64,000 nt of DNA from Methanobrevibacter sp. UBA412 (lineage in GTDB: Archaea; Methanobacteriota; Methanobacteria; Methanobacteriales; Methanobacteriaceae), in the NCBI GenBank assembly GCA_002495685.1, contig DAGJ01000012.1, positions 14,994 through 78,993 of the forward strand, in the 5' to 3' direction. Position 1 is the first letter of the stretch. The number at the start of each line of letters is the position of its first letter. Made by a program: the position numbers and the translations under genes. Below the pieces are notes generated by a model, which was not told where the DNA came from, did not search any database, and was given only the letters and a program-made list of their open reading frames with translations. Below are positions 48,782 through 64,000 of this stretch, in pieces.

Positions 48782-49723
48782 TTAATCTATAATACCATCA
48801 TTAGTAATTTTAAATACACATTCTCCTTCTGGAAGATGCGGACTATCTACTAATCTTGCAATTCTTTTACCTGCTAAACCTTTTTTAAGCCAAACTCTGT
48901 AAGTTGAAGCATGCCCTAAAACATGCCCACCTATAGCTTTAGTTGGACTACCAAAGAAAGCATCAGGTCTTGCTTGAACTTGATTAGTAATGAAAACAGC
49001 AACATTATATGTATTTGCTATAGTTTGTAAAACATGCAAATGTTGATTAAGTTTTTGTTGTCTTACAGCTAATGATTCTCGTCCAACATATTCTGCTCTG
49101 AAATGTGCCATTAAAGAATCAACAATAACTAACTTAATATTAACTCCACTTTGTATTAATTCATTAATTTTATCAGCCATTAATATTTGATGAGAAGAAT
49201 TAAAAGCTCTAGCAATATGAATTTTTTGTAATGTTTCTTCAGGATCTAAATCAAAAGCATTAGCTATTTGTTCAATTCTTTCAGGTCTAAAAGTGTTTTC
49301 AGTATCAATAAATACACATTCACCATCTAAACCACCTTTATCTTCAGGCAATTGAACTGTTACAGCTAATTCATGAGATATTTGACTTTTACCTGAACCA
49401 AATTCACCAAACACTTCTGTTAATGATTGAGTTTCAATACCCCCACCGATAAGTTCATCAAAACCTGAACTTCCAGTAGTAATACGACCCACATCTTTTC
49501 TTCTTTCCATTACTTCAAATGCAGTTTCAAAATCAATATCTTCAGCTTTACGTGCAGCTTCTATAACTTTTTCTGCAACACCCTCACCAATTTCTGCTTT
49601 TACAGATAATTCCTTTGGAGTAGCAGTTGCTAATCTCATCATATCTGCAAAACCTGCATCCTGTAATTTTTCAGCTGTTTTTTCACCTACACCAGGTAAG
49701 TCCTTAAGTTCTATATCTTCCAT
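48782..49723 (-). CDS. radA: DNA repair and recombination protein RadA
   Basis: A 313-residue archaeal recombinase. The N-terminal helix-hairpin-helix ([17 protein letters not shown]) is followed by the ATPase core, with Walker A GEFGSGKS, Walker [19 protein letters not shown] and the loop segment [12 protein letters not shown]. It forms filaments on single-stranded DNA. The ATG at 49723 is preferred (GGAATGGTAATT upstream); another ATG lies three codons before. It directly follows RPA at 45 bases. Confidence 0.96.
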
Positions 49724-49768
49724 AATTACCATTCCTAATTAATATTTTTATTATTTTAAACTCATAAT

Positions 49769-52150
49769 CTAAAGTGATTTAGATAAAATTTTTTTAGGAT
49801 TTAATCTAATTGATTCATTATATTCATCGAAATTAGCATCTGCAATAATTTCTATTGATATTCCATTTAAATCTTCAATTTTGCTTTCTAAAACACTTAA
49901 ATCTTCACTATTTTCAAAAATTTGAACAATTTCAGATTTTGTCATTTCTAATAATTCCTCAACTAATTCACCAAAGAAAGTTACGGATATTTCACCAGTA
50001 TCATCTGCAATTCTTGCAGGAATCATTAAAAGATATTTTGGTTTTTCTACTTCTTCACCGCAATAATCACATACATATCCTTTATCTTCATTATTTTCTA
50101 AAGTATTATTACAGCTAGGACATTTTAAAAGTACTAATTTATCACCGTAAGGATCTTTTAATGTTCCATTAATTCTTATATTTATATCATCATCTTCTAA
50201 TGATTCTATACTTTTTTCTTGATAAATAATATCTTTTAATTCATCAAATGTAGGTAAATTATCTAATTCTTCCTCATTTGGGGATATTAAATTTGTATTA
50301 TTTCCAATACTTAATATTATTCTATCATCTCTAAAAGATACACGAGGGTTTTCTATTTTAACTGCACTTCCAACATCAAATTCTTGTAAATTTGTTTTAG
50401 CATCCCATAAACTAGCTTTAATTGAACCAGTATCATCAGCTAAATCTATACTTCTAACCATTCCCGGTGTTCCATCTGTTTTTTGAAATTCATGAATATC
50501 TTGTATATCTAAAATTCTTGCTACAACACGAATATTTTTATCATCTTCATTTAATTCATCGATTTTCTTTTTTTCATATAATGTTTCTTCTAATTCTGCA
50601 AATGAAGGTAAATCTGTGACTTCATCTTCTTTAAGTTCAATTACTCTTGCAGTTTTTCCTATATTGAGTTCTATTTCACTCATTCCAAGTTTAGTTCTAG
50701 CATTCTCAAGTTGAAAAGGTTTACCTAATTGAAGATTAGAATTTATTGCTTTATCATCCCAAAAAGAAACACGAACACTACCAGTTCGATCCGCAAAATC
50801 TGCAGATCTAACAGTGCCTACACTTCCATCATCTCTTTGAAATTCTCTAGAATCATTTAATGATATAACTCTTCCTAAAATATCAACTTCTTCACCATCA
50901 TCATCATCAAAACTTTGAACTTGTTCAATTGGTAAAGGTCCAAGTTTTGATTGTGATTCTTTCAAAGTACTAACCAAATCATCATATCCCTTAGGATCTA
51001 TAACAAATCGTGTGTTCCAATTTGTATTAATTCTATAACCAGATTTAGCATAATCATCATATTCAATATTTCCACCAATAATTTCTACAATATCCCCTTT
51101 GTTAAATTCTAAATTAGTATCATCATTCCATAAAGTCACTCTAATAGAACCTGTATCATCAGCTATTTCTATTGATTTAACATGACCCTCACTACTATCT
51201 TTTCTTTGAAAAGAAATTGTATCTTGTATTTTAGTAATTATCCCTAATATTGTAACATCTTTTTGCTCATGAGCTTCCCCTAACTTGAATAATGTTTCTT
51301 CAAATTCTGGAACATCAAAATCGCCTTTAATTGTTCGACCATCCCAATGAGACAATGATACTTCCCCATTTCTTTCTTTAACATGAGCACCTAATATTTT
51401 TATAGTATCATTCTCATTTAAATCAAGAGTTTCTATTAATTTAACATCTTTATTCCATAAGGTATAAGATATTTTACCAGTAGAATCTTGAATTTCAATG
51501 GAAGTAACTTCCCCTTTTTTACCATTACTATTATATTTTCTAATTTGAGGTATTCTTATTATTCTACCTATTATATTAACTGTTTCATTAGGAACTATAT
51601 CCTTAATCATAGTTATAGGTTCTTCATATCTTGGAAAATCTGGGAAATCATCTGAATTTAAAACTTTCATATTGGATCGAGGTTTTAAATGTACTTCTAA
51701 ACCTCTATAACCATCTTTAGATTCAACATTAGTTATTTGTACAACATCCCCTTCCTTAATGTTTTTAAGATGTTTGATATTTTCTGTCCATAAAACAACT
51801 CGTATATTTCCAGTATCATCAGCAAGTTTCAAGTTACATAATTTACCATCATTTCCTTGTCGAGAGGTAAATTGTTTAACATCAGATATTCCCATGATTC
51901 TACCAGTAAGTGTTAAATCATTAATATTTGCTTCTAATTCATTAATTTTATACTTTGCATGTTTTTCATTAGAAATTGGATCATTATTTTCATCAATAAA
52001 TGTTCCTACAACCATTCGTGCCATATCAATGTCTTTAACAAAACTAACATCTTCATATTCTTTTTTTAGTGAGTCCATTTTCTCTAAAAATTCTTTTTCA
52101 GAGACTTGGTCTTTAACTTTTTCATATTCATCTAATATTTCTTGATCCAT
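49769..52150 (-). CDS. rpa: Replication protein A, large multi-OB-fold form
   Basis: A 793-residue single-stranded DNA-binding protein. At least five OB-fold repeats are seen (about 80-170, 185-275, 290-385, 405-500 and 535-625). Each has a conserved ADDTG or related turn followed by a VxLW or VxFW strand. A sixth OB-like segment near the C-terminus contains a zinc finger (CPSCNNTLENNEDKGYVCDYC). Shine-Dalgarno TGAGGG and a TATA-like TTATATAAAAAC near 52188-52199. Upstream of radA, a partner in repair. Confidence 0.93.
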   Translation of the reverse strand: MDQEILDEYEKVKDQVSEKEFLEKMDSLKKEYEDVSFVKDIDMARMVVGTFIDENNDPISNEKHAKYKINELEANINDLTLTGRIMGISDVKQFTSRQGNDGKLCNLKLADDTGNIRVVLWTENIKHLKNIKEGDVVQITNVESKDGYRGLEVHLKPRSNMKVLNSDDFPDFPRYEEPITMIKDIVPNETVNIIGRIIRIPQIRKYNSNGKKGEVTSIEIQDSTGKISYTLWNKDVKLIETLDLNENDTIKILGAHVKERNGEVSLSHWDGRTIKGDFDVPEFEETLFKLGEAHEQKDVTILGIITKIQDTISFQRKDSSEGHVKSIEIADDTGSIRVTLWNDDTNLEFNKGDIVEIIGGNIEYDDYAKSGYRINTNWNTRFVIDPKGYDDLVSTLKESQSKLGPLPIEQVQSFDDDDGEEVDILGRVISLNDSREFQRDDGSVGTVRSADFADRTGSVRVSFWDDKAINSNLQLGKPFQLENARTKLGMSEIELNIGKTARVIELKEDEVTDLPSFAELEETLYEKKKIDELNEDDKNIRVVARILDIQDIHEFQKTDGTPGMVRSIDLADDTGSIKASLWDAKTNLQEFDVGSAVKIENPRVSFRDDRIILSIGNNTNLISPNEEELDNLPTFDELKDIIYQEKSIESLEDDDINIRINGTLKDPYGDKLVLLKCPSCNNTLENNEDKGYVCDYCGEEVEKPKYLLMIPARIADDTGEISVTFFGELVEELLEMTKSEIVQIFENSEDLSVLESKIEDLNGISIEIIADANFDEYNESIRLNPKKILSKSL

Positions 52151-52460: not shown

Positions 52461-53864
52461 TTAATAAGCATTTTTATTACTTTTAAAAACTGTTTTGAAA
52501 AGTATAATTACATCCAAACCAAAATGCCAATTTTCTACATATTCAATATCATATTGTATACGTTTGTTAATAGATGTATTGCCTCTACATCCATGTATTT
52601 GAGCCCAACCTGTTAATCCAGGGCGAACTTGATGTTTAACCATATATTTAGGTATTTCTTTTCTAAATTTATCCACAAAATATGGTCTTTCTGGTCTTGG
52701 ACCCACAACACTCATATCCCCTTTTAATACATTGAAAAACTGTGGAAGTTCATCAATGCTTGTTTTTCTAATAAAATCGCCAACTTTAGTTTTTCTGGAA
52801 TCATTAGGAGTAGTCCATCCAGTTTCTTCATCTTTTTCACTTTGAACTTTCATGCTTCGAAACTTATACATTATAAAAGGTTTTCTTTTATAACCTATTC
52901 TTTCCTGTTTAAAAATAATGGGTCCTGGAGATTCAATTTTAATTGCAATAGCAGTTAATAGCATTATTGGAGAAGTGATAATGATTGCTATTATAGAAAT
53001 CAAAATATCTTCAACAACTTTTAAAAACTTATTAAATGTATCATCTAAAGGAACATAGCGAATATTTATAATTGGTAAATCATCAATCATATCCACAGAA
53101 GGTTTAGCTGGAAGATATTTATAATAATCTGGGAGAATTTCCGCTTTGATTCCAGCATTTTCACATATATCAACTAATTCAGTTAATTTAGGAAAATATT
53201 CTAAAGATATAGCTATAACAACCCTATCAAAATTATGTTTTGTTAATATAGGTTCTAAATCATTGAAAGTTCCAACAAATCTGGTTCCTTCAATTTCTTG
53301 ACCCAAATGTTCTTTTCGACCTAATAATCCTCTAACAGAATATCCTAAATATTTTTTTGCCTTGATTTTTTTAATAAAAGTAAAAGCCAAATCATTATCG
53401 CCAACAACTAGAATATGTTTCAAATTATGATCTTTTGACCTAATCAATCTTAACATTGCACGAATTAATGCTCTTTCAATAATACCATAAATTATACCAA
53501 ATATACCTAAAAGAAATAAGAGTATTCTTGAAAAATCAGGTTGATTAATAAGAAATAAGAAAGCTACTAAGACCATAAAAGACATTAAATTTGCTTTAAT
53601 AATAGATGTTGCTTCTGAAAAAATTGATTTTTGATTTCTAAATGGTTTATATAATCCAAAAAAGTAGAAAAATAAGAGATAAACTGGTATTACTGCAAAT
53701 AAAGTAAATATGAAATAAGATCCAAAACCAAGATATCCTCCAATAGGTCCAAATATGGTTGTTTTAAATCTAATATAAAATGCAGTAAGTAATGCAAATA
53801 AAATTATTACAACATCTGTTAAAACTAATATCGCATTTAAAAATTGTTGATTTTGTTTAATCAT
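52461..53864 (-). CDS. Polyprenyl-phosphate glycosyl-1-phosphate transferase
   Basis: A 467-residue membrane protein of the WcaJ/CpsE type. Four N-terminal membrane helices (about 10-115), a central Rossmann-like domain (HILVVGDNDLAFTFIKKI) and a fifth helix near 285 precede the catalytic bacterial-sugar-transferase domain, with KQERIGYKRKPFIMYKFRSM, TSIDELPQFFNVLKGDMSVVGPRPERP and LTGWAQIHG. It transfers a sugar-1-phosphate to a polyprenyl phosphate and so begins surface-glycan assembly. Last gene of the minus-strand cluster. Shine-Dalgarno AAGTGGAAT. Confidence 0.92.
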   Translation of the reverse strand: MIKQNQQFLNAILVLTDVVIILFALLTAFYIRFKTTIFGPIGGYLGFGSYFIFTLFAVIPVYLLFFYFFGLYKPFRNQKSIFSEATSIIKANLMSFMVLVAFLFLINQPDFSRILLFLLGIFGIIYGIIERALIRAMLRLIRSKDHNLKHILVVGDNDLAFTFIKKIKAKKYLGYSVRGLLGRKEHLGQEIEGTRFVGTFNDLEPILTKHNFDRVVIAISLEYFPKLTELVDICENAGIKAEILPDYYKYLPAKPSVDMIDDLPIINIRYVPLDDTFNKFLKVVEDILISIIAIIITSPIMLLTAIAIKIESPGPIIFKQERIGYKRKPFIMYKFRSMKVQSEKDEETGWTTPNDSRKTKVGDFIRKTSIDELPQFFNVLKGDMSVVGPRPERPYFVDKFRKEIPKYMVKHQVRPGLTGWAQIHGCRGNTSINKRIQYDIEYVENWHFGLDVIILFKTVFKSNKNAY

Positions 53865-53995
53865 TGAATAATTCCACTTTTTTTATAATTTAAATTAAAT
53901 CAATATAAAAGAATTTATTATTTAATTCTATATAAAAACCTTTATTTTAATATATTTATTTATAAAAACCTAAAAATTTTAATTAAAAAAATAGA

Positions 53996-55102
53996 TTAAA
54001 TAGCGCCTGTGAATTTTTTGAAAAATGGAATCTTACTAAGCACTAACATTGCTACCCAAGCTACTAAGAATAAAACTAATGACAATATTGGAATTGAAAT
54101 TAGTGCATTCATAGAAGCAAAATCTACATTCATTACCCATAACAATTTAAATAGCAATAAATGACTTAAATAAATACCAAAAGAGAAAATACTAATAGAT
54201 AATATAATATTTGCTGATTTTCCTTCACTGAAATAAGTTGTAATATTGTTTTTAGTTATTGAATTAAAATTAATATTTTTAAATATTAAAAATAAACTAA
54301 TAGCTTGAAAAACGGTTGTTAAATCATAATAATCTATTCCTTGGAATGAACCTGCAATAAGTGAATTATTATATATCATGAAAACTTTAAGAATTGTTGA
54401 AATAATTAATACACCAACCCATAAATAATTATTTTGGGAAAGTTTAGTTTTTGTATTGTGTAAATAATATCCTAAAATAAAATATCCTAAAGGTCCGGCA
54501 AAATATCTTAAATCTATATTAACATAAGGTAACTTGAATGTTGTAAAAACACATGTTACAAGCCAGATAATTAAAAAGTATTTCACTTCATCAAATGATG
54601 AATTTTTAATCCATTTATTAATAATTGGAGTTATAAGATAAACGCTTAAAATCATCCATACAAACCAAAAGTGATTTAAATAACCAGGTTGTCCTAAAAA
54701 CATGTTAATTATAAATGATATAATTGAAATAATTGAATTATAATCTGGTACTTTACCTTCAGTAAAACCAAAGACGAAACTAAAGATTACATAAACACTT
54801 CCCCAAAATAAAAATGGAATTAATATACGGGAAAATCTTTTTTCAATGAATCCCTTAAAATTATAGTCCCGATTAAGTAGTAATGTTCCAGAAATCATTA
54901 TAAATATAGGTATTGATATTTTTGCAAAAGTACTGTAAAAATCTGCAAATAACCAATTAATATTTACAGGAGAGTGTATTAATGTTTCAGCAGAAACATG
55001 ACCCACAACAACTAAAAATATTGCAAAAGCTTTTAAAAAATCTAAATAAAAAATTCTTTTTGAGCTAACTTTACCTGGTATTAATATATTTTTCAATTGC
55101 AT
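53996..55102 (-). CDS. Membrane acyltransferase, acyltransferase-3 family
   Basis: A 368-residue protein with about ten hydrophobic helices and the family start FYLDFLKAFAIFLVVVGH containing the conserved His. It probably O-acetylates a surface glycan or teichoic-acid-like polymer, which fits its location. No Shine-Dalgarno is evident before the ATG; a TATA-like GTTTATATTATACC near 55166-55178 lies upstream, so it may have its own promoter. Confidence 0.87.
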   Translation of the reverse strand: MQLKNILIPGKVSSKRIFYLDFLKAFAIFLVVVGHVSAETLIHSPVNINWLFADFYSTFAKISIPIFIMISGTLLLNRDYNFKGFIEKRFSRILIPFLFWGSVYVIFSFVFGFTEGKVPDYNSIISIISFIINMFLGQPGYLNHFWFVWMILSVYLITPIINKWIKNSSFDEVKYFLIIWLVTCVFTTFKLPYVNIDLRYFAGPLGYFILGYYLHNTKTKLSQNNYLWVGVLIISTILKVFMIYNNSLIAGSFQGIDYYDLTTVFQAISLFLIFKNINFNSITKNNITTYFSEGKSANIILSISIFSFGIYLSHLLLFKLLWVMNVDFASMNALISIPILSLVLFLVAWVAMLVLSKIPFFKKFTGAI

Positions 55103-55263
55103 GGAAATCGGTTTATTAAAAATTTTAAAAAATTAATTATTCTAATATAACTATTAAATAAGGTATAATATAAACATATCGAATTTATAGCTTGTTAAAA
55201 ATTAGTTAATTACTTATTTATTATTCATTGAAAAAAAATTTAAGGATAAGTAAACATTCCAAA

Positions 55264-56133
55264 TTAATTCGTTTTAAATAAATTTAAAATTAATTTTACA
55301 ATAAATTGAAAAAAAATTCCAAAATATACAATAAAATTTACAATAACAGAATACTTTTTTGTATAATGTTTTTTATAAAATATATACATTGATTTATGAA
55401 ATTCATATACCAATTTAAAACTTTTTTTACTACTAGAACCTTTATAATGTATAATTTCGCTTTTACCAAAATAAATTATTTTCCACCCAGATTCTTTAAT
55501 TCTGTAACACCAATCAATATCTTCACCATACATAAAATAATCTTCATCAAGAAGACCAACTTGATTTATTACTTCCATTTTAACTAACATGAAAGCGCCG
55601 ACTAAACAATCGATTTCATAAACTCCATTGTTATCTAAATCATCTAAGTTATAATTATTTATATCTGAATTTTTATTAGGAATGTGAAATAATTTATAAA
55701 ATGAGTTTATTGGATTTGGAAAACTACGTTTACATGCTTTATCCAACTCTCCATTTGGAAGAGAAACTTTACATCCTAAAGCCCCAACATCAGGATAGCT
55801 TTTAATATAATTTAAACATTGATTTAAAACATCACCCTTAATTATAGTATCAGAATTTAAAAGCAAGACATATTTAGAGCTTGATTTTTTAATAGCTAAA
55901 TTATTTGCATATGCAAATCCCATATTAGAATTATTTTTTATAAAAATTATTTTATGATTTTTTACTTCTTTAAAGAAAGTTTTCTCTAATTTTTCTAAAC
56001 TACCATCATCAGATTTATTATCTACTATTATAATATTATAAGTAAAATTGGGATTACTAAGCAATATTGAATTTATTGAATTTTTTGTTAATTCATATGT
56101 CCTAAAATTAACTATTATTATTGATAAATCCAT
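55264..56133 (-). CDS. GT2-family glycosyltransferase
   Basis: A 289-residue GT-A glycosyltransferase of the rhamnosyl/hexosyl type. DLSIIIVNFRTYELTKNSI opens the nucleotide-binding fold, LLLNSDTI contains the DxD-like motif, and EDIDWCYRIKESGWKIIYFG is conserved. A hydrophobic C-terminal segment (about 268-289) may associate with the membrane. It adds a sugar to the growing polymer or linkage unit. 35 bases after the next GT2 gene; GGATGGGG Shine-Dalgarno. Confidence 0.88.
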   Translation of the reverse strand: MDLSIIIVNFRTYELTKNSINSILLSNPNFTYNIIIVDNKSDDGSLEKLEKTFFKEVKNHKIIFIKNNSNMGFAYANNLAIKKSSSKYVLLLNSDTIIKGDVLNQCLNYIKSYPDVGALGCKVSLPNGELDKACKRSFPNPINSFYKLFHIPNKNSDINNYNLDDLDNNGVYEIDCLVGAFMLVKMEVINQVGLLDEDYFMYGEDIDWCYRIKESGWKIIYFGKSEIIHYKGSSSKKSFKLVYEFHKSMYIFYKKHYTKKYSVIVNFIVYFGIFFQFIVKLILNLFKTN

Positions 56134-56168
56134 TTTTTCCCCATCCTTATAATATTTTTAAAGAAAAT

Positions 56169-57140
56169 TTATTTTTTAAATAATTTAATAGTGTTAACTA
56201 TTAATTTCCACTCAATTTTAAAATAATTTTTAAAATTTTTATTTTGATAATGAACTTTTCTTATTTTACTTTTATCATTTAATCCTTCTTTAATACCAGT
56301 TAAATAGACCTTCCCAAAACCTTTTTTAACAAAAAATAAATATTTTATTAAAAAACCTAAAAAAATAAATGCTATGTTAATTATTTTTTGAGGAATTGGA
56401 AGATTTTTATAAATTACTAAAACATTATTTCGAGCAGATAAACGAATTTTAAATTCATTATATTTAGATCCACTACTTCCACTCCCAATATGATAAACTA
56501 TTGATTCAGGACAATATACATTTTTATATCCATTAATTTGTGCTCTGTAAGCTAAATCAACATCTTCCATGTAAGCAAAAAAATTTTCATCAAAACAGCC
56601 TAATTTTATTACTAAGGATCTTTTATATAAAGCTGCACCTGCACAACTACTAAATGTCTCTCTTTCTTTAGTATATTTATTTATATTTTGACCATTACCT
56701 ACTTTTTTTGTATAAGCTAATAAAGTATATTCATCTCCAGCATCATCTATTAAATTCCTATTATTAAATTGAATCATTTTTGATGCTGATGAAAATATGA
56801 AATCATCTTTTGTAATACAATTTATCAAAGGAGATATAGAGTTATTATTTAATTCAACATCATTATTTAAGAATAATAATAATTCAGATTGTGCTATTTT
56901 TATTCCCTGATTTGTTGCCTTTGCAAAACCTAAATTTTCTTTATTTTGGATTAAAATAATTTGTAAGGGATAATCTAAATTCTTTTGATAGTCTTTTATA
57001 ATGTTCACACTATTATCTGTTGAACCATTATCAACAATGATAACTTCTCTTATATGTTTATTTTGACTGATTAAAGATTCAAAATATATATTTAAAAAAT
57101 TTTCACCATTATAATTTGGGGTTATAATTGAAACTTTCAT
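56169..57140 (-). CDS. GT2-family glycosyltransferase
   Basis: A 323-residue protein with KVSIITPNYNGENFLNIYFESL, a catalytic LLFLNNDVEL and the late YMEDVDLAYRAQINGYKN motif, characteristic of GT2 enzymes. Residues about 250-275 are hydrophobic. Sugar donor and acceptor are not predictable. It is 23 bases downstream of the third GT2 gene, with TAGGTTAAT as Shine-Dalgarno. Confidence 0.88.
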   Translation of the reverse strand: MKVSIITPNYNGENFLNIYFESLISQNKHIREVIIVDNGSTDNSVNIIKDYQKNLDYPLQIILIQNKENLGFAKATNQGIKIAQSELLLFLNNDVELNNNSISPLINCITKDDFIFSSASKMIQFNNRNLIDDAGDEYTLLAYTKKVGNGQNINKYTKERETFSSCAGAALYKRSLVIKLGCFDENFFAYMEDVDLAYRAQINGYKNVYCPESIVYHIGSGSSGSKYNEFKIRLSARNNVLVIYKNLPIPQKIINIAFIFLGFLIKYLFFVKKGFGKVYLTGIKEGLNDKSKIRKVHYQNKNFKNYFKIEWKLIVNTIKLFKK

Positions 57141-57163
57141 TTAATTAACCTAATACTTAAATT

Positions 57164-58192
57164 TTAGATGCTGTTTTTAAATGTTTTCCATAAAATATAA
57201 TAAATTTTAGGACTTATTAAAAATATTTCTGTTTTAAATAAAAACAATAAGTCAGTTTTTTCATAAGGCTTAAAACCTCTAAGTTTTCTAACATAATCTA
57301 TTTCTTTCATTTTATCCATTACTTTATTAAACGGATAATTTTTATAAAATAAATACATTAAATTTCCAAATATAGCTTTGGGTATCCTATAATTAGTGAT
57401 TAAATCTATTAACTCTTCAACATAAGGATAATTAATTAATTCTTCTTTTGGCATATTATAATCATGATAATATATTGCTAAATTTTCTAATATTTTTATA
57501 AAATTAAATCTTTCAAGAAAACTTTGAGATGTTGAAGATGAACTATTTTGTAAATAGAAATAACTTGGTTTAGCAGTATAACCTACTTTTTTAACATGAA
57601 TTAATGATTTTAATGCAAATTCAGTGTCTTCACCATAGGATACATTAGCAGTGAATCTTAAACCATTTTCATCTAAAATTTGTTTATCATACATTATCTG
57701 ACAAAATCTAAATGGGATTTTCATCATTAATTCTTGTTTTATTAAATCATAATTCCCTATAATAGATTTACCCTTAATAGAATCATATGCTGTTGGTTTG
57801 GTTAGTACTACTCCATCTTGACTAATTATTAACATTTGAGTAAAAGAAAAATCGCAATCTTTTTCTATTATTGATTCATATAACCATTTAATATGATTTT
57901 TACCAATATAATCATCCCCATCCAAAAAAACTATATATTTTCCTTTAGCCAAATCTAAACCTTTGTTTCTAGCTGTACTAACTCCTTTATTTTCTTGATA
58001 AAAAATTTGAAAAGGAATATTAGATTGAGATAGTAAATTATCAACTTTTTCTATACTATCATCATATGATCCATCATTAATAATAATAACTTCAAAATCA
58101 TTGAAAGTTTGGTTTATAAGAGATAATAATGTATTTTCTATGTAATTAGAATTGTTAAAAACTGGTATTATAACACTAACTTTTGGATTCAT
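57164..58192 (-). CDS. GT2-family glycosyltransferase, CPS/teichoic-acid type
   Basis: A 342-residue protein starting MNPKVSVIIPVFNNSNYIEN, with VIIINDGSYDDS and the DGDDYIG catalytic motif (about 92-98). The C-terminal part (about 220-342) resembles the helical regions of glycosyltransferases from teichoic-acid and capsule clusters. It follows tarJ at 27 bases, with GGAGATATTTA as Shine-Dalgarno, tying it to polyol-phosphate polymer synthesis. Confidence 0.87.
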   Translation of the reverse strand: MNPKVSVIIPVFNNSNYIENTLLSLINQTFNDFEVIIINDGSYDDSIEKVDNLLSQSNIPFQIFYQENKGVSTARNKGLDLAKGKYIVFLDGDDYIGKNHIKWLYESIIEKDCDFSFTQMLIISQDGVVLTKPTAYDSIKGKSIIGNYDLIKQELMMKIPFRFCQIMYDKQILDENGLRFTANVSYGEDTEFALKSLIHVKKVGYTAKPSYFYLQNSSSSTSQSFLERFNFIKILENLAIYYHDYNMPKEELINYPYVEELIDLITNYRIPKAIFGNLMYLFYKNYPFNKVMDKMKEIDYVRKLRGFKPYEKTDLLFLFKTEIFLISPKIYYILWKTFKNSI

Positions 58193-58219
58193 TAAATATC
58201 TCCTTTTATTTCATGATTT

Positions 58220-59245
58220 TTATTTATTCCAAACTAAAACAGTTTTACCAAAATTTGAATTAAAATCTTTATCAAATGCTTTAGTAATATCATTTAAATT
58301 ATTTATCTCAATTGTTTCATTGATAATATTTTCTAAGTATTCTAATATTTTTGGATTTTCTTTAAATAAATTAATAGCCCCTAAGAAATCTTTTCTACCA
58401 CTACGTGTTGTTCCAAACAATATTAATCCTTTCTCTAAAATCATTCTAGTGTTAATTTGAATAGGATATTCAGATACTCCAAGTATAGAAATAGTGCCTT
58501 CCGGATTTATTAAATCTATAATTTGGGATATTGCGGACTGAGAATTTAATCCCCCTACAGCTTCAAATGCATGATCAATAGTTAAATCCTTTGGTATTTC
58601 ATTGATTTTATAAGTTTTATCAACAAATGAAAACATTTCCAATTTTTCATCATTAACCCCAAAAACTATTATCTTTGAATTGGGAAATATAATTTTTAAG
58701 AGAAGAGAAGTGATATAACCTAAATTACCATCACCCCAAATACCTATAATATTTTTATTTTTATTAGAATGTTTTTTAAATCTCAATATTGCTTGATAAC
58801 TAACTGTAACAAGTTCAGTGAATGCTAAAACATTAAGATTACAATTATTAGGTATTTTAATTAATCTATCTGGTTTTAATGATACATAATCTTCCATGAA
58901 TCCATCATAACCACTAGATCTAAATTTACTAGAAGTTAAATAATTTTCAGCAATAACTTTATCATTTTCTATGGGAATATTAGGAATCATAACCACATTA
59001 TCACCAACATTAAAATGACCAGTCCCATCTTTAATTACTTTACCTACACCTTCATGTATTAAAGCCATTGGAAGTTTATTATTTAATACTTCTGGAACCC
59101 TACTACCTTGATAATATCTTTGATCTGCATTACAAATTGACAAGTGAGTTGGACGAACTATAACCTCATTTTCCAAATCATTTATTTCTCCGTAAACCTC
59201 TTCAAATAACTTTGGAGAAACAAGTCTATATATAATATTAATCAT
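58220..59245 (-). CDS. tarJ: Ribulose-5-phosphate reductase, TarJ-like (ribitol-5-phosphate dehydrogenase)
   Basis: A 341-residue medium-chain zinc alcohol dehydrogenase relative. SICNADQRYYQGS (Cys38), LIHEGVGKV, AENYLTSSKFRSSGYDGFM and GIWGDGNLGYITSLL closely follow bacterial TarJ. TarJ reduces ribulose 5-phosphate to ribitol 5-phosphate with NADPH for CDP-ribitol. I place the start at the ATG at 59245, where homologues begin (MINIIYRLVSPK), preceded by GGTGGTATTTG; the longer frame begins inside tarI. It lies 22 bases after the tarI stop, as in bacterial tarIJ pairs. Confidence 0.88.
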   Translation of the reverse strand: MINIIYRLVSPKLFEEVYGEINDLENEVIVRPTHLSICNADQRYYQGSRVPEVLNNKLPMALIHEGVGKVIKDGTGHFNVGDNVVMIPNIPIENDKVIAENYLTSSKFRSSGYDGFMEDYVSLKPDRLIKIPNNCNLNVLAFTELVTVSYQAILRFKKHSNKNKNIIGIWGDGNLGYITSLLLKIIFPNSKIIVFGVNDEKLEMFSFVDKTYKINEIPKDLTIDHAFEAVGGLNSQSAISQIIDLINPEGTISILGVSEYPIQINTRMILEKGLILFGTTRSGRKDFLGAINLFKENPKILEYLENIINETIEINNLNDITKAFDKDFNSNFGKTVLVWNK

Positions 59246-59267
59246 CAAATACCACCAATATTTTATA

Positions 59268-59972
59268 TTATTCTTCATTAAGAATTGAATTAGCTACTTT
59301 TAAATCATATGGATATGTAATTTTAATATTAGTTACTTCCCCATTAACTAAAAAAACATCCTCATTATTCATGATAAAAATCTTTGCAGCATCAGTTAAA
59401 ATTGATTTTTCATTATTAGATAATTTATTGTAAAGTTCTTTCAATTTGAGAATTTTAAAAGATTGGGGTGTTTGACCTTGATACATATTTATTCTATTTG
59501 GAATATCACTAACAAATTGACCGTTTAAACTTTGAACAATTGTATCAGATGCAGGAATTATAGTATCACACGCACCATACTTAATTACAGCATTAATATT
59601 ATCTTCAATGATCCTATGTGTAACAAATGGTCTTACTGAATCATGAGTAACAATGATATCTTCAGAATTAATTGAAAAATTAGATTCAATGTAATTAATA
59701 GCTTTCATAATAGTTTCATTTCTTACATTTCCTGCTTCAATAACTATTATATTTTGATTATCCTTTATGTATTTATTAATAAGATCTTTAGTATAATTAA
59801 TCCATTGCTTTGGACATAAAACAATGATTTTATTAAAATTAGGATTAATATAAAATTTTTCTATAGTGTGAATTATTATAGGTTTATTTCCTAAGAAAAG
59901 AAATTGTTTAGGTTTATCTACATTTCCCATTCTAATTCCAGTTCCACCTGCTAAAATAGCCGCAAATATCAT
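59268..59972 (-). CDS. tarI: Ribitol-5-phosphate cytidylyltransferase, TarI-like
   Basis: A 234-residue IspD/TarI-family cytidylyltransferase, with MIFAAILAGGTGIRMG and PKQFLFLGNKPIIIHT binding CTP. Archaea make isoprenoids by the mevalonate route, so IspD activity would be out of place. The adjacent TarJ makes CDP-ribitol formation the likely role. The ATG at 59972 is preceded by GGTGAAAAAC. The C-terminal segment (TNIKITYPYDLKVANSIL) is as in bacterial TarI. Confidence 0.9.
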   Translation of the reverse strand: MIFAAILAGGTGIRMGNVDKPKQFLFLGNKPIIIHTIEKFYINPNFNKIIVLCPKQWINYTKDLINKYIKDNQNIIVIEAGNVRNETIMKAINYIESNFSINSEDIIVTHDSVRPFVTHRIIEDNINAVIKYGACDTIIPASDTIVQSLNGQFVSDIPNRINMYQGQTPQSFKILKLKELYNKLSNNEKSILTDAAKIFIMNNEDVFLVNGEVTNIKITYPYDLKVANSILNEE

Positions 59973-60116
59973 GTTTTTCACCATTAAATAAAAAGTTCTT
60001 TAAACTCAAAATAACAAAGTTTATAGAATATATTATCTTAATTATGTTTTTCATTATAAATAATATTTATATTTATTATATTGAATCCTTAAAAATAGGG
60101 TTTTAAAATTTTGTAA

Positions 60117-61232
60117 TTAATTTTTTAATACATAATCAAGAATTCGTTTAGAAGACATATCATCAAAATAATCAAATTGATAGTTTGCAAAACTACCAAT
60201 TTTATCAAAATCAAAATTTAAAGATTTAATTGTATCAATTAATTCTTGTGAATCATAAACGATAGGTCCCGGAACATTTTTTTTATAATTATAATAAAAC
60301 CCTCGTTCTTTAGTTTCATAATCTTCTAAATCAAAACTAAAGAAAATAGATGGCTTTTTCAAGAAACTAAACTCAATCATAATAGAAGAATAATCGGTAA
60401 TTAATATATCTGACAATAACAATAACTCTTGCTCATTTTCATAATGAGTGCAATCTATAACTTCATTTGATTTTAAAATTTTAAATATATTAGAATTTTC
60501 ACTAACAACTTCTCTTATTTTTGGATGTAATCTTACAATTAAAGCATAATCTTTACCTAATTGATTATTAAATTTTTTAACATCGAAAAAATTAAAAATA
60601 TTAGCATATTTCTCATTTTCCCTAAATGTAGGGGCATAAAGTATAATTTTCTTATTTTTAATTTCTGGATGTTCTTTTTCAAAATTAATTCGTATTTTAT
60701 TTAAATTTTTTTCAGACAAATTTTCCTTTGAATAAAAATCAGTTTTAGGAATTCCAAGAGGTAAAATTTTATTTTTATTAATATTAAAAGCATTTTTGTA
60801 AAAATCAATTATATTATGAGAAGTAACTATAAGATATGTTGTTTTTCTAGATATTTCACTTAATAATTCTTTTCTAGATTCATCTTTTAGTATAGAATAA
60901 CCAAATTTCTTAAAAGCCCCTGGTGCATGCCATAATTGGATTATTTTAACATCCCTATTAAAATTCATAAATGCCATTGGAAAAAAGTTATCATTTAAAA
61001 AAATATATTTAGAAGTTGCTAAATTATAAAAATTTAATAATGAAATTTTATCTTTTTTAAAAAAAGTATAATCATAATCAGATTCTTCTTTATTTAATTC
61101 CTTGATAATATATTTAAAATTATCTTCAAATGACTTATTTTTATCTGTTATGAAAGTTATTTTATTTGATTTTAATGGAAAAATTCTACAAATATTAAAA
61201 AAAAATCCCATTAGCTTGTGTTTAAAGTACAT
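60117..61232 (-). CDS. CDP-glycerol/CDP-ribitol polyol-phosphate transferase (TagF/TarL-like)
   Basis: A 371-residue member of the CDP-glycerol:poly(glycerophosphate) glycerophosphotransferase family. The typical IQLWHAPGAFKKFGYS and ILITDYSSIMIEFSFLKKPSIFF are present. Such enzymes transfer polyol phosphate from CDP-polyol to a teichoic-acid chain. Next to tarIJ, CDP-ribitol is the likely donor, but sequence cannot separate primase from polymerase or glycerol from ribitol. The start at 61232 has AGGTCATTGT; an upstream in-frame TTG is less likely. Confidence 0.87.
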   Translation of the reverse strand: MYFKHKLMGFFFNICRIFPLKSNKITFITDKNKSFEDNFKYIIKELNKEESDYDYTFFKKDKISLLNFYNLATSKYIFLNDNFFPMAFMNFNRDVKIIQLWHAPGAFKKFGYSILKDESRKELLSEISRKTTYLIVTSHNIIDFYKNAFNINKNKILPLGIPKTDFYSKENLSEKNLNKIRINFEKEHPEIKNKKIILYAPTFRENEKYANIFNFFDVKKFNNQLGKDYALIVRLHPKIREVVSENSNIFKILKSNEVIDCTHYENEQELLLLSDILITDYSSIMIEFSFLKKPSIFFSFDLEDYETKERGFYYNYKKNVPGPIVYDSQELIDTIKSLNFDFDKIGSFANYQFDYFDDMSSKRILDYVLKN

Positions 61233-61266
61233 ACAATGACCTAAAAGTTTTAACAAAAATTTTTAA

Positions 61267-62301
61267 TTAATATAATTCAATATTATGTAACTCCTCTGCT
61301 GATGCTTCTTTAGCTGTTTCAATATAAGCATCACAAACTTCATCAACATCCCCGTCCATAACAAGATTACCGTGATCCAACCATAAAACTCTTTTACATA
61401 ATTGTCTAATTTGATCAACAGAATGTGAAACTAAAAATACGGTTACTCCAGAACCCATCATAGATTTAAGTTTATCTCCACTTTTTTTCTTAAATTTTAC
61501 ATCCCCAACAGATAAGACTTCATCTAAAATTAAAATATCTGGTTCAACTATAGTTGCAACTGAAAAACCTAATTTAGATAGCATACCTGAAGAATAATTT
61601 TTAATTGGAACTTGAATAAATTCACCTAACTCGGAAAAATCAACTATTTCATCATATTTTGATTGTAAAAAATCTTTTTGATATCCTAAAATTGCACCAT
61701 TTAAAAAAATATTTTCTTCACCAGTATAATTATAATCAAAACCTGCACCTAATTCAAGTAAAGGTGCAATTCTACCATGAGACTCAACATTACCTTTAGT
61801 TGGTTTCATAACCCCTGCTAAAATTTTCAATAATGTACTTTTTCCAGCTCCATTAAATCCTATTATACCTACTCTTTCACCTTTATGAACTGTGAAAGAA
61901 AGATTATTTAATGCTAAAAAATGTGTTTTAGGTTTAATCTCGTGTTTAATCCTTTTTATAACATATTCTTTTAGATTATCTACTTTTTCTTGATTTAAAT
62001 TAAATTCCATTGTTAAATTTTCTACTTTTATGGCTATTTCATTAGAAATATTATAAGGAAGTGATTGAAATTCATTATCTTCTTCTTTAGTGTTTATATC
62101 ATTAATTGTGCTTCCTAAACCTTGTTCATCTAAAAAATTATCAGAATGATTTTTATCCCTTTCTATTAATTGACCAGAGGTTTTAGAGAGACTATAATTT
62201 TTATTTACTTTAATAAGATTTTTATCTTTCTCAGCTTTTTTCTTTGCATCTTCAATAGATTTTTCTATGATCTCATTATTTGATTCAATATCAGCACCCA
62301 T
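61267..62301 (-). CDS. tagH: ABC exporter ATP-binding protein, TagH-like
   Basis: A 344-residue ATPase of the polysaccharide/teichoic-acid export type. Walker A is GFNGAGKST (148-156), the signature YSSGM lies at 236-240, and Walker B ILILDEVLS at 256-264. About 90 charged residues precede the conserved domain (1-89), an unusual extension. The core (LALNNLSFTVHKGERVGIIG) matches TagH, RfbE and KpsT relatives. AGGAGGT is the best Shine-Dalgarno in the cluster. It pairs with the permease 32 bases upstream. Confidence 0.9.
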   Translation of the reverse strand: MGADIESNNEIIEKSIEDAKKKAEKDKNLIKVNKNYSLSKTSGQLIERDKNHSDNFLDEQGLGSTINDINTKEEDNEFQSLPYNISNEIAIKVENLTMEFNLNQEKVDNLKEYVIKRIKHEIKPKTHFLALNNLSFTVHKGERVGIIGFNGAGKSTLLKILAGVMKPTKGNVESHGRIAPLLELGAGFDYNYTGEENIFLNGAILGYQKDFLQSKYDEIVDFSELGEFIQVPIKNYSSGMLSKLGFSVATIVEPDILILDEVLSVGDVKFKKKSGDKLKSMMGSGVTVFLVSHSVDQIRQLCKRVLWLDHGNLVMDGDVDEVCDAYIETAKEASAEELHNIELY

Positions 62302-62333
62302 TATTTAACCTCCTCTTTAATTTTGTCATTTTT

Positions 62334-63116
62334 TTATAAATATAATATGAATTTATCTTGGTATTTGTAAAAAATATACATTCCTATAAATAATAATACA
62401 AATGCAACTATTCCCAATACAATCATGTATTTTATATTAGGAAATATTCCTCCTAGAATAGCATCCCGTGCTCCAGCAATAGCTAAATAAACAGGATTTA
62501 ATTCGAATAAAAATTGATATTGTTGAGGTAATACTTCAACAGGATAAAATATTGCTGATGCATACATTAAAGTCATAGTGAAAACACCATACAAATATCT
62601 AATATCTGTGAAAAATGTTGTTAAAGTAGCTAAGATTAAACCTACACCAATCGCCATTATAACTAATAAGAATACTGGAATTATTGTAAATATTATAGTA
62701 GGATGGAATGGTGCATTTGTAACAAGCATTACTAAAACTAGTACTACTAAAGATATTAAAAAATTAACTAATTCCGAACAGGTTGTCCCAAGTGCAAACA
62801 TATACTTTGGAAGGTAAATTTTTTTAATTATGCCAGCATTCCCTTTAATTGATTCCATTGCACCATTAGTAGCAGCATTAAATAAGTTAAATATTAAAAA
62901 TCCTGTTAAAAAATAAACTGGGAAATTATCAATTGACATTTTAAAGACATAAGAAAAAATAAAGGTTAATACAACCATAGTTAATAATGGATTTAAAAAA
63001 CTCCATAATAAACCTAAAACAGAATCCTTATATTTACCTTTTATATCTCTTTTCACAAGTTCTACTAACAAAAATTTATATTTAGTAAAATTTGAAATAA
63101 AACGTTTATCAAACAT
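62334..63116 (-). CDS. tagG: ABC exporter permease, TagG-like
   Basis: A 260-residue ABC-2 permease with six hydrophobic helices (first about 35-60, last about 230-250). LVKRDIKGKYKDSVLGLLWSF leads the family motif. Together with TagH it would flip or export a lipid-linked teichoic-acid-like chain across the membrane. AGGTATTG precedes the ATG. Confidence 0.9.
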   Translation of the reverse strand: MFDKRFISNFTKYKFLLVELVKRDIKGKYKDSVLGLLWSFLNPLLTMVVLTFIFSYVFKMSIDNFPVYFLTGFLIFNLFNAATNGAMESIKGNAGIIKKIYLPKYMFALGTTCSELVNFLISLVVLVLVMLVTNAPFHPTIIFTIIPVFLLVIMAIGVGLILATLTTFFTDIRYLYGVFTMTLMYASAIFYPVEVLPQQYQFLFELNPVYLAIAGARDAILGGIFPNIKYMIVLGIVAFVLLFIGMYIFYKYQDKFILYL

Positions 63117-63280
63117 TGCAATACCTAATTAGTTTTTAATATTCTTTCTTAAGATTTTAAAATTAGATTAAATAAAATTAGTAATCTAAATATTAAATTA
63201 TTAATTTTATTATTTATTTCTTCTTTTATAAAAATTACCATTTAAAATAAAAAAAATATGAAATATTATAAAGTATAAAA

Positions 63281-64000
63281 TTAAATTTTAAGTTTATGAA
63301 TAAAATTCTTAATTTTCATTCTTCTTTTTCTGGATTTTTTGATATTATTAGAAGCTTTTACAAATTCATCAAAATTTTTATTTTTAAGGGGTTTAACTAA
63401 TGGAATATAAATTGTTTCACCAAAATCCGGAGTATATTTTAATTGTTCGGTTAATATAGGCCCCATTCTTTTTGCAAGATCTTTTTTATCCATATTTGAA
63501 ATATCACTAGCAATGAAACTTGTTAACCAAAATACTAAATGAGCCCTAAATACATTTGAAAAATATTTCTCTTGATTTAAATTTATTAGCATGTCCCATG
63601 TTTCATAATAGCCTGAAATCATAGCATCTAAATATTTTTTATTTCTAACATGAATAGTTGATTTATCTTCATCGGTATCACGTATCTTATAATTATAACC
63701 AAAGTAATTATCCAAATAAACAATAGAATTAGATTGTAATAATACATTTATGAAAAAATTTAAATCTTCAGCTAACATTCCTTCTAAGAATCGTATATTA
63801 TGTTCATTAAGAAAAGATTTTCTAAACAATTTTATCCATATGGCAGGACCTATGTCAAAAAATCTTAAATCTTCATCTATTGAACTAATCTTTATTTTAT
63901 CAAAATCAGGACCGAAAATATATGTATGTTTTTCTTTTATGTTCTTATATTCTTCAAAATAATTTGAAGATACCATATCTGCATTTTCTTTAGTTATGGT
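63281..64000 (-). CDS. Glycosyltransferase-like protein, C-terminal part (cut by window edge)
   Basis: The open frame runs off the right edge, and the first complete ATG inside it (63976) is not the real start, since coding sequence continues upstream (TKENADM). The visible C-terminal part, about 240 residues, has FFDIGPAIWIKLFRKSFLN, FLEGMLAEDLNFFINVLLQ and a basic tail. These are typical of GT2 enzymes in capsule and teichoic-acid clusters. It is upstream of tagG and probably part of the same cluster; the catalytic domain is outside the window. Confidence 0.75.
   Translation of the reverse strand, partial: TITKENADMVSSNYFEEYKNIKEKHTYIFGPDFDKIKISSIDEDLRFFDIGPAIWIKLFRKSFLNEHNIRFLEGMLAEDLNFFINVLLQSNSIVYLDNYFGYNYKIRDTDEDKSTIHVRNKKYLDAMISGYYETWDMLINLNQEKYFSNVFRAHLVFWLTSFIASDISNMDKKDLAKRMGPILTEQLKYTPDFGETIYIPLVKPLKNKNFDEFVKASNNIKKSRKRRMKIKNFIHKLKI

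What the first reader, a model, noticed from the sequence alone, without database searches (positions are those of the whole stretch)
52461..64000. Teichoic-acid-like surface-polymer system in a methanogen
The minus-strand cluster encodes the parts of a bacterial wall-teichoic-acid pathway. These are CDP-ribitol synthesis (TarI 59268-59972, TarJ 58220-59245), a CDP-polyol phosphotransferase (60117-61232), a TagG/TagH exporter (61267-63116), GT2 enzymes, a lipid-phosphate glycosyltransferase and an O-acyltransferase. Archaea lack peptidoglycan and use mevalonate-derived dolichyl-type lipids, so the carrier, linkage unit and attachment point (pseudomurein?) must differ from the bacterial ones. 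I know of annotations of such genes in Methanobrevibacter genomes but not of a solved polymer structure.
Basis: partly seen in the sequence, partly recalled or inferred. Interest (0 to 1): 0.78.

Follow-up and report, generated by a model that had tools for sequence, protein, structure and literature searches.

The report
Ribitol-phosphate wall-glycan cluster in a methanogen
This methane-producing archaeon carries bacterial-type genes, shared by much of its genus, that most likely build and export a sugar chain bearing ribitol phosphate and rhamnose onto its cell surface; the idea is partly in print, but the papers I found give no structure of the polymer and its anchor is open.

Summary
The cluster is real and correctly placed. 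TarI, TarJ and a TarL-type phosphotransferase are supported by family models, solved relatives and, for TarL, a confident predicted fold; catalytic residues are conserved. It is native: RadA and RPA flank it, and close relatives of the phosphotransferase (E at most 1e-60) occur in 91 of 138 Methanobacteriaceae genomes, within 20 kb of the HdrA-like gene in 52 of 75 checked. The core is a WcaJ-type primer, GT2 enzymes, TarL and often TagH-TagG; TarI lies within 15 kb of it in only 6 of 76 genomes. New here: rmlC (dTDP-rhamnose) lies within 25 kb of the phosphotransferase in 57 of 87 genomes, while TagA is absent (0 of 138 over cut-off) and LCP rare (8 of 138). So it is not the textbook wall-teichoic-acid pathway. 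Best reading: a polyprenyl-diphosphate-linked, rhamnose-containing glycan carrying ribitol phosphate, comparable to the enterococcal polysaccharide antigen, exported by a TarGH/Wzm-Wzt transporter. The anchor is unknown. Teichoic-acid gene homologues and high wall phosphate in M. ruminantium were published in 2010, so the discovery is partial.

The parts
52461..53864 (-). WcaJ-type polyprenyl-phosphate hexose-1-phosphate transferase (primer of the lipid-linked glycan)
   Evidence: TIGR03023 475.9 bits over cut-off 410.75; PF02397; PDB relatives 8g1n (diNAcBac-1-phosphate transferase) and 8t53 (Und-P Gal phosphotransferase)
53996..55102 (-). membrane O-acyltransferase (Acyl_transf_3), probably a decoration enzyme; not part of the conserved core
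   Evidence: PF01757 115.8 bits; one weak relative in the 20 fetched stretches (L130, 24%)
55264..56133 (-). GT2 glycosyltransferase a; rhamnosyltransferase-like only below cut-off
   Evidence: PF00535; TIGR01556 66.5 bits, cut-off 200.55; conserved neighbour of TarL
56169..57140 (-). GT2 glycosyltransferase b
   Evidence: PF00535 102.7 bits; conserved neighbour
57164..58192 (-). GT2 glycosyltransferase c
   Evidence: PF00535 110.4 bits; neighbour of TarL in several relatives
58220..59245 (-). TarJ, ribulose-5-phosphate reductase
   Evidence: PDB 6xh9 424 bits, 2.9e-126; Cys38 and His64-Glu65 identical in the alignment
59268..59972 (-). TarI, D-ribitol-5-phosphate cytidylyltransferase
   Evidence: NF001183 372.7 bits, cut-off 166; PDB 4jis and 6xhp
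60117..61232 (-). single-domain TarL/TagF-type CDP-ribitol phosphotransferase
   Evidence: PF04464 258.8 bits; NF041713 TarL 198.4 > TarF 150.9 > TarB 126.5, none at cut-off; model pLDDT 91.3, best PDB hit TarL with CDP-ribitol 8va1
61267..62301 (-). TagH/Wzt-type exporter ATPase with about 90 extra N-terminal residues
   Evidence: PF00005; PDB 6jbh TarH 189 bits over residues 89-334
62334..63116 (-). TagG/Wzm-type exporter permease
   Evidence: PF01061 75.4 bits; PDB 6m96 76 bits, 6jbh TarG 59 bits
63281..64000 (-). C-terminal part of a fourth GT2 glycosyltransferase, cut by the window edge
   Evidence: 57% identical to an ORF of L114; full-length relatives in L125 are Glycos_transf_2
49769..52150 (-). 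RPA, flanking archaeal gene (anchors the locus, not part of the pathway)
   Evidence: NF009030 1128.3 bits, just under its cut-off of 1147; same flank in 11 of 17 relatives' loci
48782..49732 (-). RadA, flanking archaeal gene (anchors the locus, not part of the pathway)
   Evidence: TIGR02236 517.5 bits, cut-off 361.15; 85-90% identical in the 11 relatives' loci that hold it with RPA

Best explanation
The genes make a surface phosphoglycan. The WcaJ-type enzyme puts a hexose-1-phosphate on a polyprenyl phosphate. The GT2 enzymes lengthen the chain, using dTDP-L-rhamnose among other donors. TarJ reduces ribulose 5-phosphate to ribitol 5-phosphate, TarI activates it to CDP-ribitol, and the TarL-type enzyme transfers ribitol phosphate to the lipid-linked glycan. 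An acyltransferase may esterify it. TagG/TagH moves the finished chain to the outer face, where it is displayed on or in the pseudomurein wall. It works like a teichoic acid made as part of a rhamnose glycan (as in the enterococcal polysaccharide antigen), not like the classical TagO/TagA/TagB wall-teichoic-acid route. Shown by sequence: the enzyme families, the conserved cluster, the rhamnose linkage in relatives, the missing TagA and rare LCP. Inferred: substrates, chain order, chain length, export and attachment. The ligase is unknown.
For: TarI, TarJ and TarL-type assignments. H102 (equivalent of TarL H300 and TagF H444), H236 (equivalent of TagF H584 by my counting in the alignment) and D280-Y-S-S have at most one exception each in 44 aligned rows, window included. 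WcaJ, GT2a and GT2b stand with TarL in 12 of the 17 fetched loci that hold the core TarL, TagH-TagG next to TarL in 12 of 17. TarI and core TarL occur together: 76 both, 8 TarI only, 15 TarL only, 39 neither, of 138 (Fisher p 2e-14, kinship not corrected). RmlC within 25 kb of TarL in 57 of 87 genomes with both, 46 of them within 8 kb, against about 2.5% by chance in a 2-Mb genome. M. ruminantium walls are reported to hold rhamnose, galactose and high phosphate (passage in PMC2812497).
Against: No chemistry of this organism. 15 of 91 TarL-positive genomes lack TarI over cut-off, so the phosphotransferase may use another polyol there. TarI is near TarL (15 kb) in only 6 of 76 genomes with both, on one contig but farther in 7, on other contigs in 63, so TarIJ may also feed other polymers. 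The TarL-type protein lacks TarL's N-terminal part and scores under the TarL, TarF and TarB cut-offs, so it may add one unit and not a chain. No rml gene lies in the window itself. GT2a scores far under the rhamnosyltransferase cut-off. No ligase was found: LCP 8 of 138 over cut-off, WaaL-type Wzy_C 4 of 138. A review passage says methanogen walls lack teichoic acid (PMC7830786).
Confidence: 0.6

Rival explanations
1. A classical bacterial wall teichoic acid: TagO/TagA/TagB linkage unit, poly(ribitol phosphate) chain, covalent attachment by LCP enzymes.
For: TarI, TarJ, TarL-type and TarGH-type components.
Against: TagA/WecG over cut-off in 0 of 138 genomes (3 weak matches under it) while the control rings in 7 of 14 known genomes; LCP over cut-off in 8 of 138 (9 more under it; control 7 of 14), one of which looks like a bacterial contaminant; WcaJ-type primer in the cluster; one PF04464 gene only among the eleven cluster genes scanned.
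Confidence: 0.08
2. A capsule or secreted exopolysaccharide with ribitol phosphate, not attached to the wall, comparable to the Hib capsule.
For: WcaJ-type primer and Wzm/Wzt-like exporter occur in capsule and O-antigen systems (model and PDB names); no wall ligase found; M. ruminantium was described with a capsule (PMC2812497 passage).
Against: The phosphate and rhamnose are reported for cell walls of M. ruminantium (same passage).
Confidence: 0.2
3. The phosphotransferase adds a single or few ribitol-phosphate groups to a protein-linked or lipid-linked glycan, as a decoration and not a polymer.
For: Single catalytic domain; open frames of the close relatives are mostly 360-400 residues, the size of the TarB and TarF models (362 and 388 positions); TarL cut-off not reached.
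Against: Of the three Tar models the TarL polymerase scores best (198 against 151 and 127 bits), and the best PDB match is TarL.
Confidence: 0.2
4. The polyol is not ribitol: TarI/TarJ homologues act on another pentulose phosphate, or the chain carries glycerol phosphate.
For: 15 of 91 TarL-positive genomes lack TarI; TagD-like matches at 1e-8 occur in 77 of 138 genomes, though over the TagD cut-off in only 1.
Against: TarI passes the ribitol model and TarJ matches a ribulose-5-phosphate reductase far better than any other solved chain; both genes sit side by side as in Bacillota.
Confidence: 0.1
5. Bacterial contamination or a misassembled contig.
For: Genes of bacterial type; lower GC (23.5% against 27.1%).
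Against: RadA and RPA flank the cluster in the window and in 11 of 17 relatives' loci; archaeal TarI-TarJ pairs form one clade apart from the bacterial rows (99/98).
Confidence: 0.01

Closest known systems
Poly(ribitol-phosphate) wall teichoic acid of Staphylococcus aureus / Bacillus (TarI, TarJ, TarL, TarGH)
   Same: CDP-ribitol enzymes, TarL-type catalytic domain with the same catalytic histidine, ABC exporter of the TarGH/Wzm-Wzt kind
   Different: WcaJ-type primer in the cluster, no TagA/WecG over cut-off in 138 family genomes, LCP in 8 of 138, phosphotransferase lacks the N-terminal part; the wall of this order is pseudomurein
Enterococcal polysaccharide antigen (EPA), teichoic-acid decorations on a rhamnan
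   Same: rhamnose and ribitol phosphate in one polymer; the authors' model names an undecaprenyl-phosphate glucose phosphotransferase (EF2177) (passages in PMC7188991; that EPA is exported by an ABC transporter is recalled)
   Different: EPA is modelled with LicD homologues for ribitol phosphate and with TagA and TagB steps; here a TarL-type enzyme and no TagA
Hib-type polyribosyl-ribitol-phosphate capsule
   Same: CDP-ribitol-fed phosphoglycan at the surface (recalled; PMC10299916 seen in a search listing only)
   Different: Gram-negative capsule export and polymerase architecture (recalled)
Teichoic-acid gene homologues and high wall phosphate of Methanobrevibacter ruminantium M1 (2010)
   Different: no gene cluster, no tie between ribitol and rhamnose genes and no test for TagA or LCP in the passages that I read

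Membership tests
Ribitol wall teichoic acid (TagO-A-B / TarIJL pathway) | CDP-ribitol synthesis by TarI and TarJ | tested here: met
   By sequence: NF001183 372.7 bits over cut-off 166; TarJ to PDB 6xh9 424 bits
Ribitol wall teichoic acid (TagO-A-B / TarIJL pathway) | TarL/TarK polymerase | tested here: inconclusive
   PF04464 domain, TarL fold and catalytic residues, but TarL model cut-off not reached (198.4 of 1000) and N-terminal region absent
Ribitol wall teichoic acid (TagO-A-B / TarIJL pathway) | TagA/TarA (WecG family) linkage-unit transferase | tested here: not met
   0 of 138 Methanobacteriaceae genomes over cut-off; the window's own genome is not held, so this rests on relatives
Ribitol wall teichoic acid (TagO-A-B / TarIJL pathway) | LCP enzyme for attachment | tested here: not met
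   8 of 138 over cut-off, no match in the five nearest held genomes G008, G009, G012, G014, G015; the window's own genome is not held
Ribitol wall teichoic acid (TagO-A-B / TarIJL pathway) | TagO-type GlcNAc-1-phosphate primer | not tested
   PF00953 was not searched; the cluster holds a WcaJ-type primer
Ribitol wall teichoic acid (TagO-A-B / TarIJL pathway) | covalent attachment to the wall | not testable with these tools
   needs wall chemistry
EPA-like rhamnan with teichoic decoration | dTDP-L-rhamnose genes with the cluster | tested here: inconclusive
   RmlC within 25 kb of TarL in 57 of 87 relatives; none in the window, which is cut at 64000
EPA-like rhamnan with teichoic decoration | rhamnan chain carrying ribitol phosphate | not testable with these tools
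   needs NMR of the polymer
TarGH / Wzm-Wzt polymer exporters | paired ABC-2 permease and ATPase of this family | tested here: met
   PDB TarH 189 bits, Wzm-type permease 76 bits, TarG 59 bits

The most novel reading that the evidence does not exclude
Methanobrevibacter took a ribitol-phosphate module from gut Bacillota and built it into its own rhamnose-containing wall glycan, which is fixed to pseudomurein by a ligase unrelated to LCP and WaaL. That would be the first defined archaeal teichoic-type polymer known to me, with a new attachment chemistry.
Probability: 0.33. Interest if true: 0.78.

Novelty: new variant of a known kind. Interest (0 to 1): 0.52.

Why it matters
Methanobrevibacter is a main methane producer in the gut of people and livestock (recalled). 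A charged, widely conserved surface polymer would be a possible target for vaccines and phages against methanogens, a likely contact point with host immunity and partner bacteria, and a case of a bacterial-type wall polymer working on a wall without peptidoglycan. The high wall phosphate reported for M. ruminantium has no structural explanation in the passages that I read; this cluster gives specific genes and products to test.

Tried and rejected
Bacterial contamination: rejected by archaeal flanks and conservation in the genus. Plain wall teichoic acid: rejected on TagA and LCP. Glycerol-phosphate route by TagD: one of 138 genomes over cut-off, so not the general answer, though 15 TarL-positive genomes without TarI remain unexplained. 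WaaL-type ligase as the anchor: 4 of 138, control 9 of 14. A single clean transfer of TarI: the TarI-TarJ tree gives one archaeal clade among 30 archaeal rows (window included) and 25 bacterial rows (99/98), but the TarI-only tree of 70 rows leaves the main archaeal rows unresolved, puts seven second copies into two groups (three rows far from the rest, four beside archaeal rows) and puts G129 with Bacillus, Exiguobacterium and Oxalobacter rows; so one origin of the main pair is likely, not proven, and further transfers are probable. Folding the TagH of Methanobrevibacter relatives to name its N-terminal domain led nowhere: the 50 rows listed are ABC-type ATPases, and the sequence had no credible PDB relative (best E 0.53).

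Full report
What is there. The minus-strand genes between 52461 and the window edge are open frames with gaps of 22-164 bp and are correctly named in the main. TarI passes the NCBIfam ribitol-5-phosphate cytidylyltransferase model with 372.7 bits against a cut-off of 166, and stays under the IspD model's cut-off. TarJ aligns end to end with the solved ribulose-5-phosphate reductase 6xh9 (424 bits), with Cys38 and His64-Glu65 identical (that these are zinc positions is recalled). The phosphotransferase is a PF04464 protein whose best solved relative is TarL (8va1) by sequence and by predicted fold (pLDDT 91.3, TM-score on the query 0.77-0.83 for three chains). It corresponds to residues 197-556 of TarL.

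Active site. H102 aligns with the residue changed in the TarL H300N and TagF H444N structures; H236 aligns with a histidine of TagF that I count as H584 in the alignment. In 44 distinct rows (window included) at 45% identity or more, these and the motif D280-Y-S-S have at most one exception each.

The rest of the machine. The exporter ATPase matches TarH best and the permease matches an O-antigen-type permease better than TarG, so the exporter belongs to the wider TarGH/Wzm-Wzt group. The primer passes the WcaJ model (475.9 bits, cut-off 410.75). Three GT2 enzymes and the end of a fourth, and an acyltransferase, complete the set.

Is it native? Yes. The flank is RadA (517.5 bits, cut-off 361.15) and RPA (1128.3, just under the cut-off of 1147); the gene I used as a further marker is HdrA-like (974.7 bits, cut-off 1100). 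No genome is held for the window; the nearest held genomes are 83-85% identical over the HdrA-like gene. With the window's phosphotransferase, 103 of 138 Methanobacteriaceae genomes have a match at 1e-20 and 91 at 1e-60 (listed; some are contig-edge pieces). It lies within 20 kb of the HdrA-like gene in 52 of the 75 genomes for which I entered both places. In 20 stretches fetched, 17 hold the core phosphotransferase; 12 of these show WcaJ, GT2a, GT2b and the phosphotransferase together, and 11 also show the RadA-RPA flank. TarI lies within 15 kb of the phosphotransferase in 6 of 76 genomes with both (G016, G018, G022, G106, G108, G138), farther on the same contig in 7, on another contig in 63; so the window's arrangement is uncommon.

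Where the ribitol genes came from. TarI over the cut-off is present in 84 of 138 family members and in none of the 13 further genomes of the phylum search (84 of 151). The nearest non-archaeal relatives are bacteria at up to 65% identity, most of them Bacillota by record title and several from rumen assemblies. In a tree of joined TarI-TarJ, 30 archaeal rows form one clade against 25 bacterial rows (99/98). The rows were the best-scoring archaeal copies and the nearest bacterial ones, so sampling is narrow. With TarI alone and 70 rows the main archaeal rows are unresolved, and second copies and G129 fall elsewhere.

The rhamnose link. RmlC passes its cut-off in 125 of 138 genomes. Of 91 genomes with the core phosphotransferase, 87 have RmlC, and in 57 it lies within 25 kb, in 46 within 8 kb; about 2.5% would be expected by chance in a 2-Mb genome. 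In 25 of the 87 the two are on different contigs, which in draft genomes does not speak for or against, and in 5 they are farther apart on one contig. Related genomes share the arrangement, so these are not independent cases. rmlA, rmlB and rmlC were checked by NCBIfam in L120 and L127, and rmlC in L130 and L131, the others in the fetched stretches by similarity. No rml gene is in the window, which ends inside the cluster. This fits the wall analysis quoted in the M. [quoted passage not shown]

What is missing. TagA/WecG: 0 of 138 over cut-off, 3 weak matches, with the control ringing in 7 of 14 known genomes. LCP: 8 of 138 over cut-off and 9 more under it, control 7 of 14; the one in G004 comes with a long basic N-terminus and looks like a bacterial contaminant by eye, the one in G083 is an edge fragment of 33.6 bits. 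WaaL-type Wzy_C: 4 of 138, control 9 of 14. So neither the bacterial linkage unit nor the usual attachment enzymes are at hand in nearly all relatives, and the anchor is open. TagO-type enzymes were not searched.

Against my reading. 15 of 91 phosphotransferase-bearing genomes have no TarI over cut-off; draft genomes may explain some but hardly all. Eight genomes have TarI without a phosphotransferase match at 1e-60. TarI is seldom next to the core. The phosphotransferase misses the TarL, TarF and TarB cut-offs. The co-occurrence test ignores kinship. A review passage says methanogen walls contain no teichoic acid (PMC7830786).

Literature. Searches: 'teichoic acid'+Methanobrevibacter+ribitol, 0 papers; teichoic+pseudomurein+methanogen, 5; CDP-ribitol+archaea, 6; teichoic acid+Methanobrevibacter, 37, of which 20 listed; Methanobrevibacter smithii+teichoic+surface, 15. 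Passages seen: PMC2812497; PMC5816558, where mru_1079, a CDP-glycerol glycerophosphotransferase, is filed under teichoic acid biosynthesis; PMC12820599; PMC4302986; PMC7188991; PMC8428557; PMC7830786. No paper was read whole. None of the passages on methanogens gives a polymer structure. The library lacks most subscription journals, so older wall chemistry was not seen.

Verdict. A real, native system found in much of the genus; the general idea was in print in 2010; what is added here is the conserved cluster, the tie to rhamnose genes, the absence or rarity of the bacterial linkage and attachment enzymes, and the likely shared origin of the main TarI-TarJ pair.

Noticed in passing
window 61267-62301; L125, L118, L115, L130: The exporter ATPase has extra residues before its ATPase domain whose nature differs between relatives: about 90 in the window, a confidently predicted beta-rich module of about 300 residues in M. 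smithii-like proteins, about 770 in L118, none in L130. Wzt proteins carry their glycan-binding domain at the other end (recalled), so this may be a substrate-recognition module placed at the N-terminus.
   Followed up: partly
G013, G014, G023, G024, G026, G027, G028, G030, G032, G034, G035, G037, G038, G046, G073: Fifteen genomes have the core phosphotransferase but no TarI over cut-off; the polyol used there is unknown.
   Followed up: partly
L187-L191, L193, L194: Second TarI copies, 35-48% identical to the window's and without a TarJ found in the fetched stretch, in seven genomes examined.
   Followed up: partly
L135, L137 and others: Proteins of about 440 residues with an N-terminal TagD-like cytidylyltransferase domain under the TagD cut-off and an oxidoreductase-like remainder (by eye).
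   Followed up: no
L146-L150, L152: LCP-family matches, open frames of about 280 residues where complete, in six genomes (G010, G122, G135, G136, G138, G139); if not contamination, LCP attachment enzymes in archaea.
   Followed up: no
G025, G030, G055, G062, G100 and others: Very large open frames (over 1100 residues) with PF04464-like regions besides the core copy; perhaps variable capsule-type polymerases.
   Followed up: no
window 52461-64000: The cluster is lower in GC than the rest of the window (23.5% against 27.1%).
   Followed up: yes
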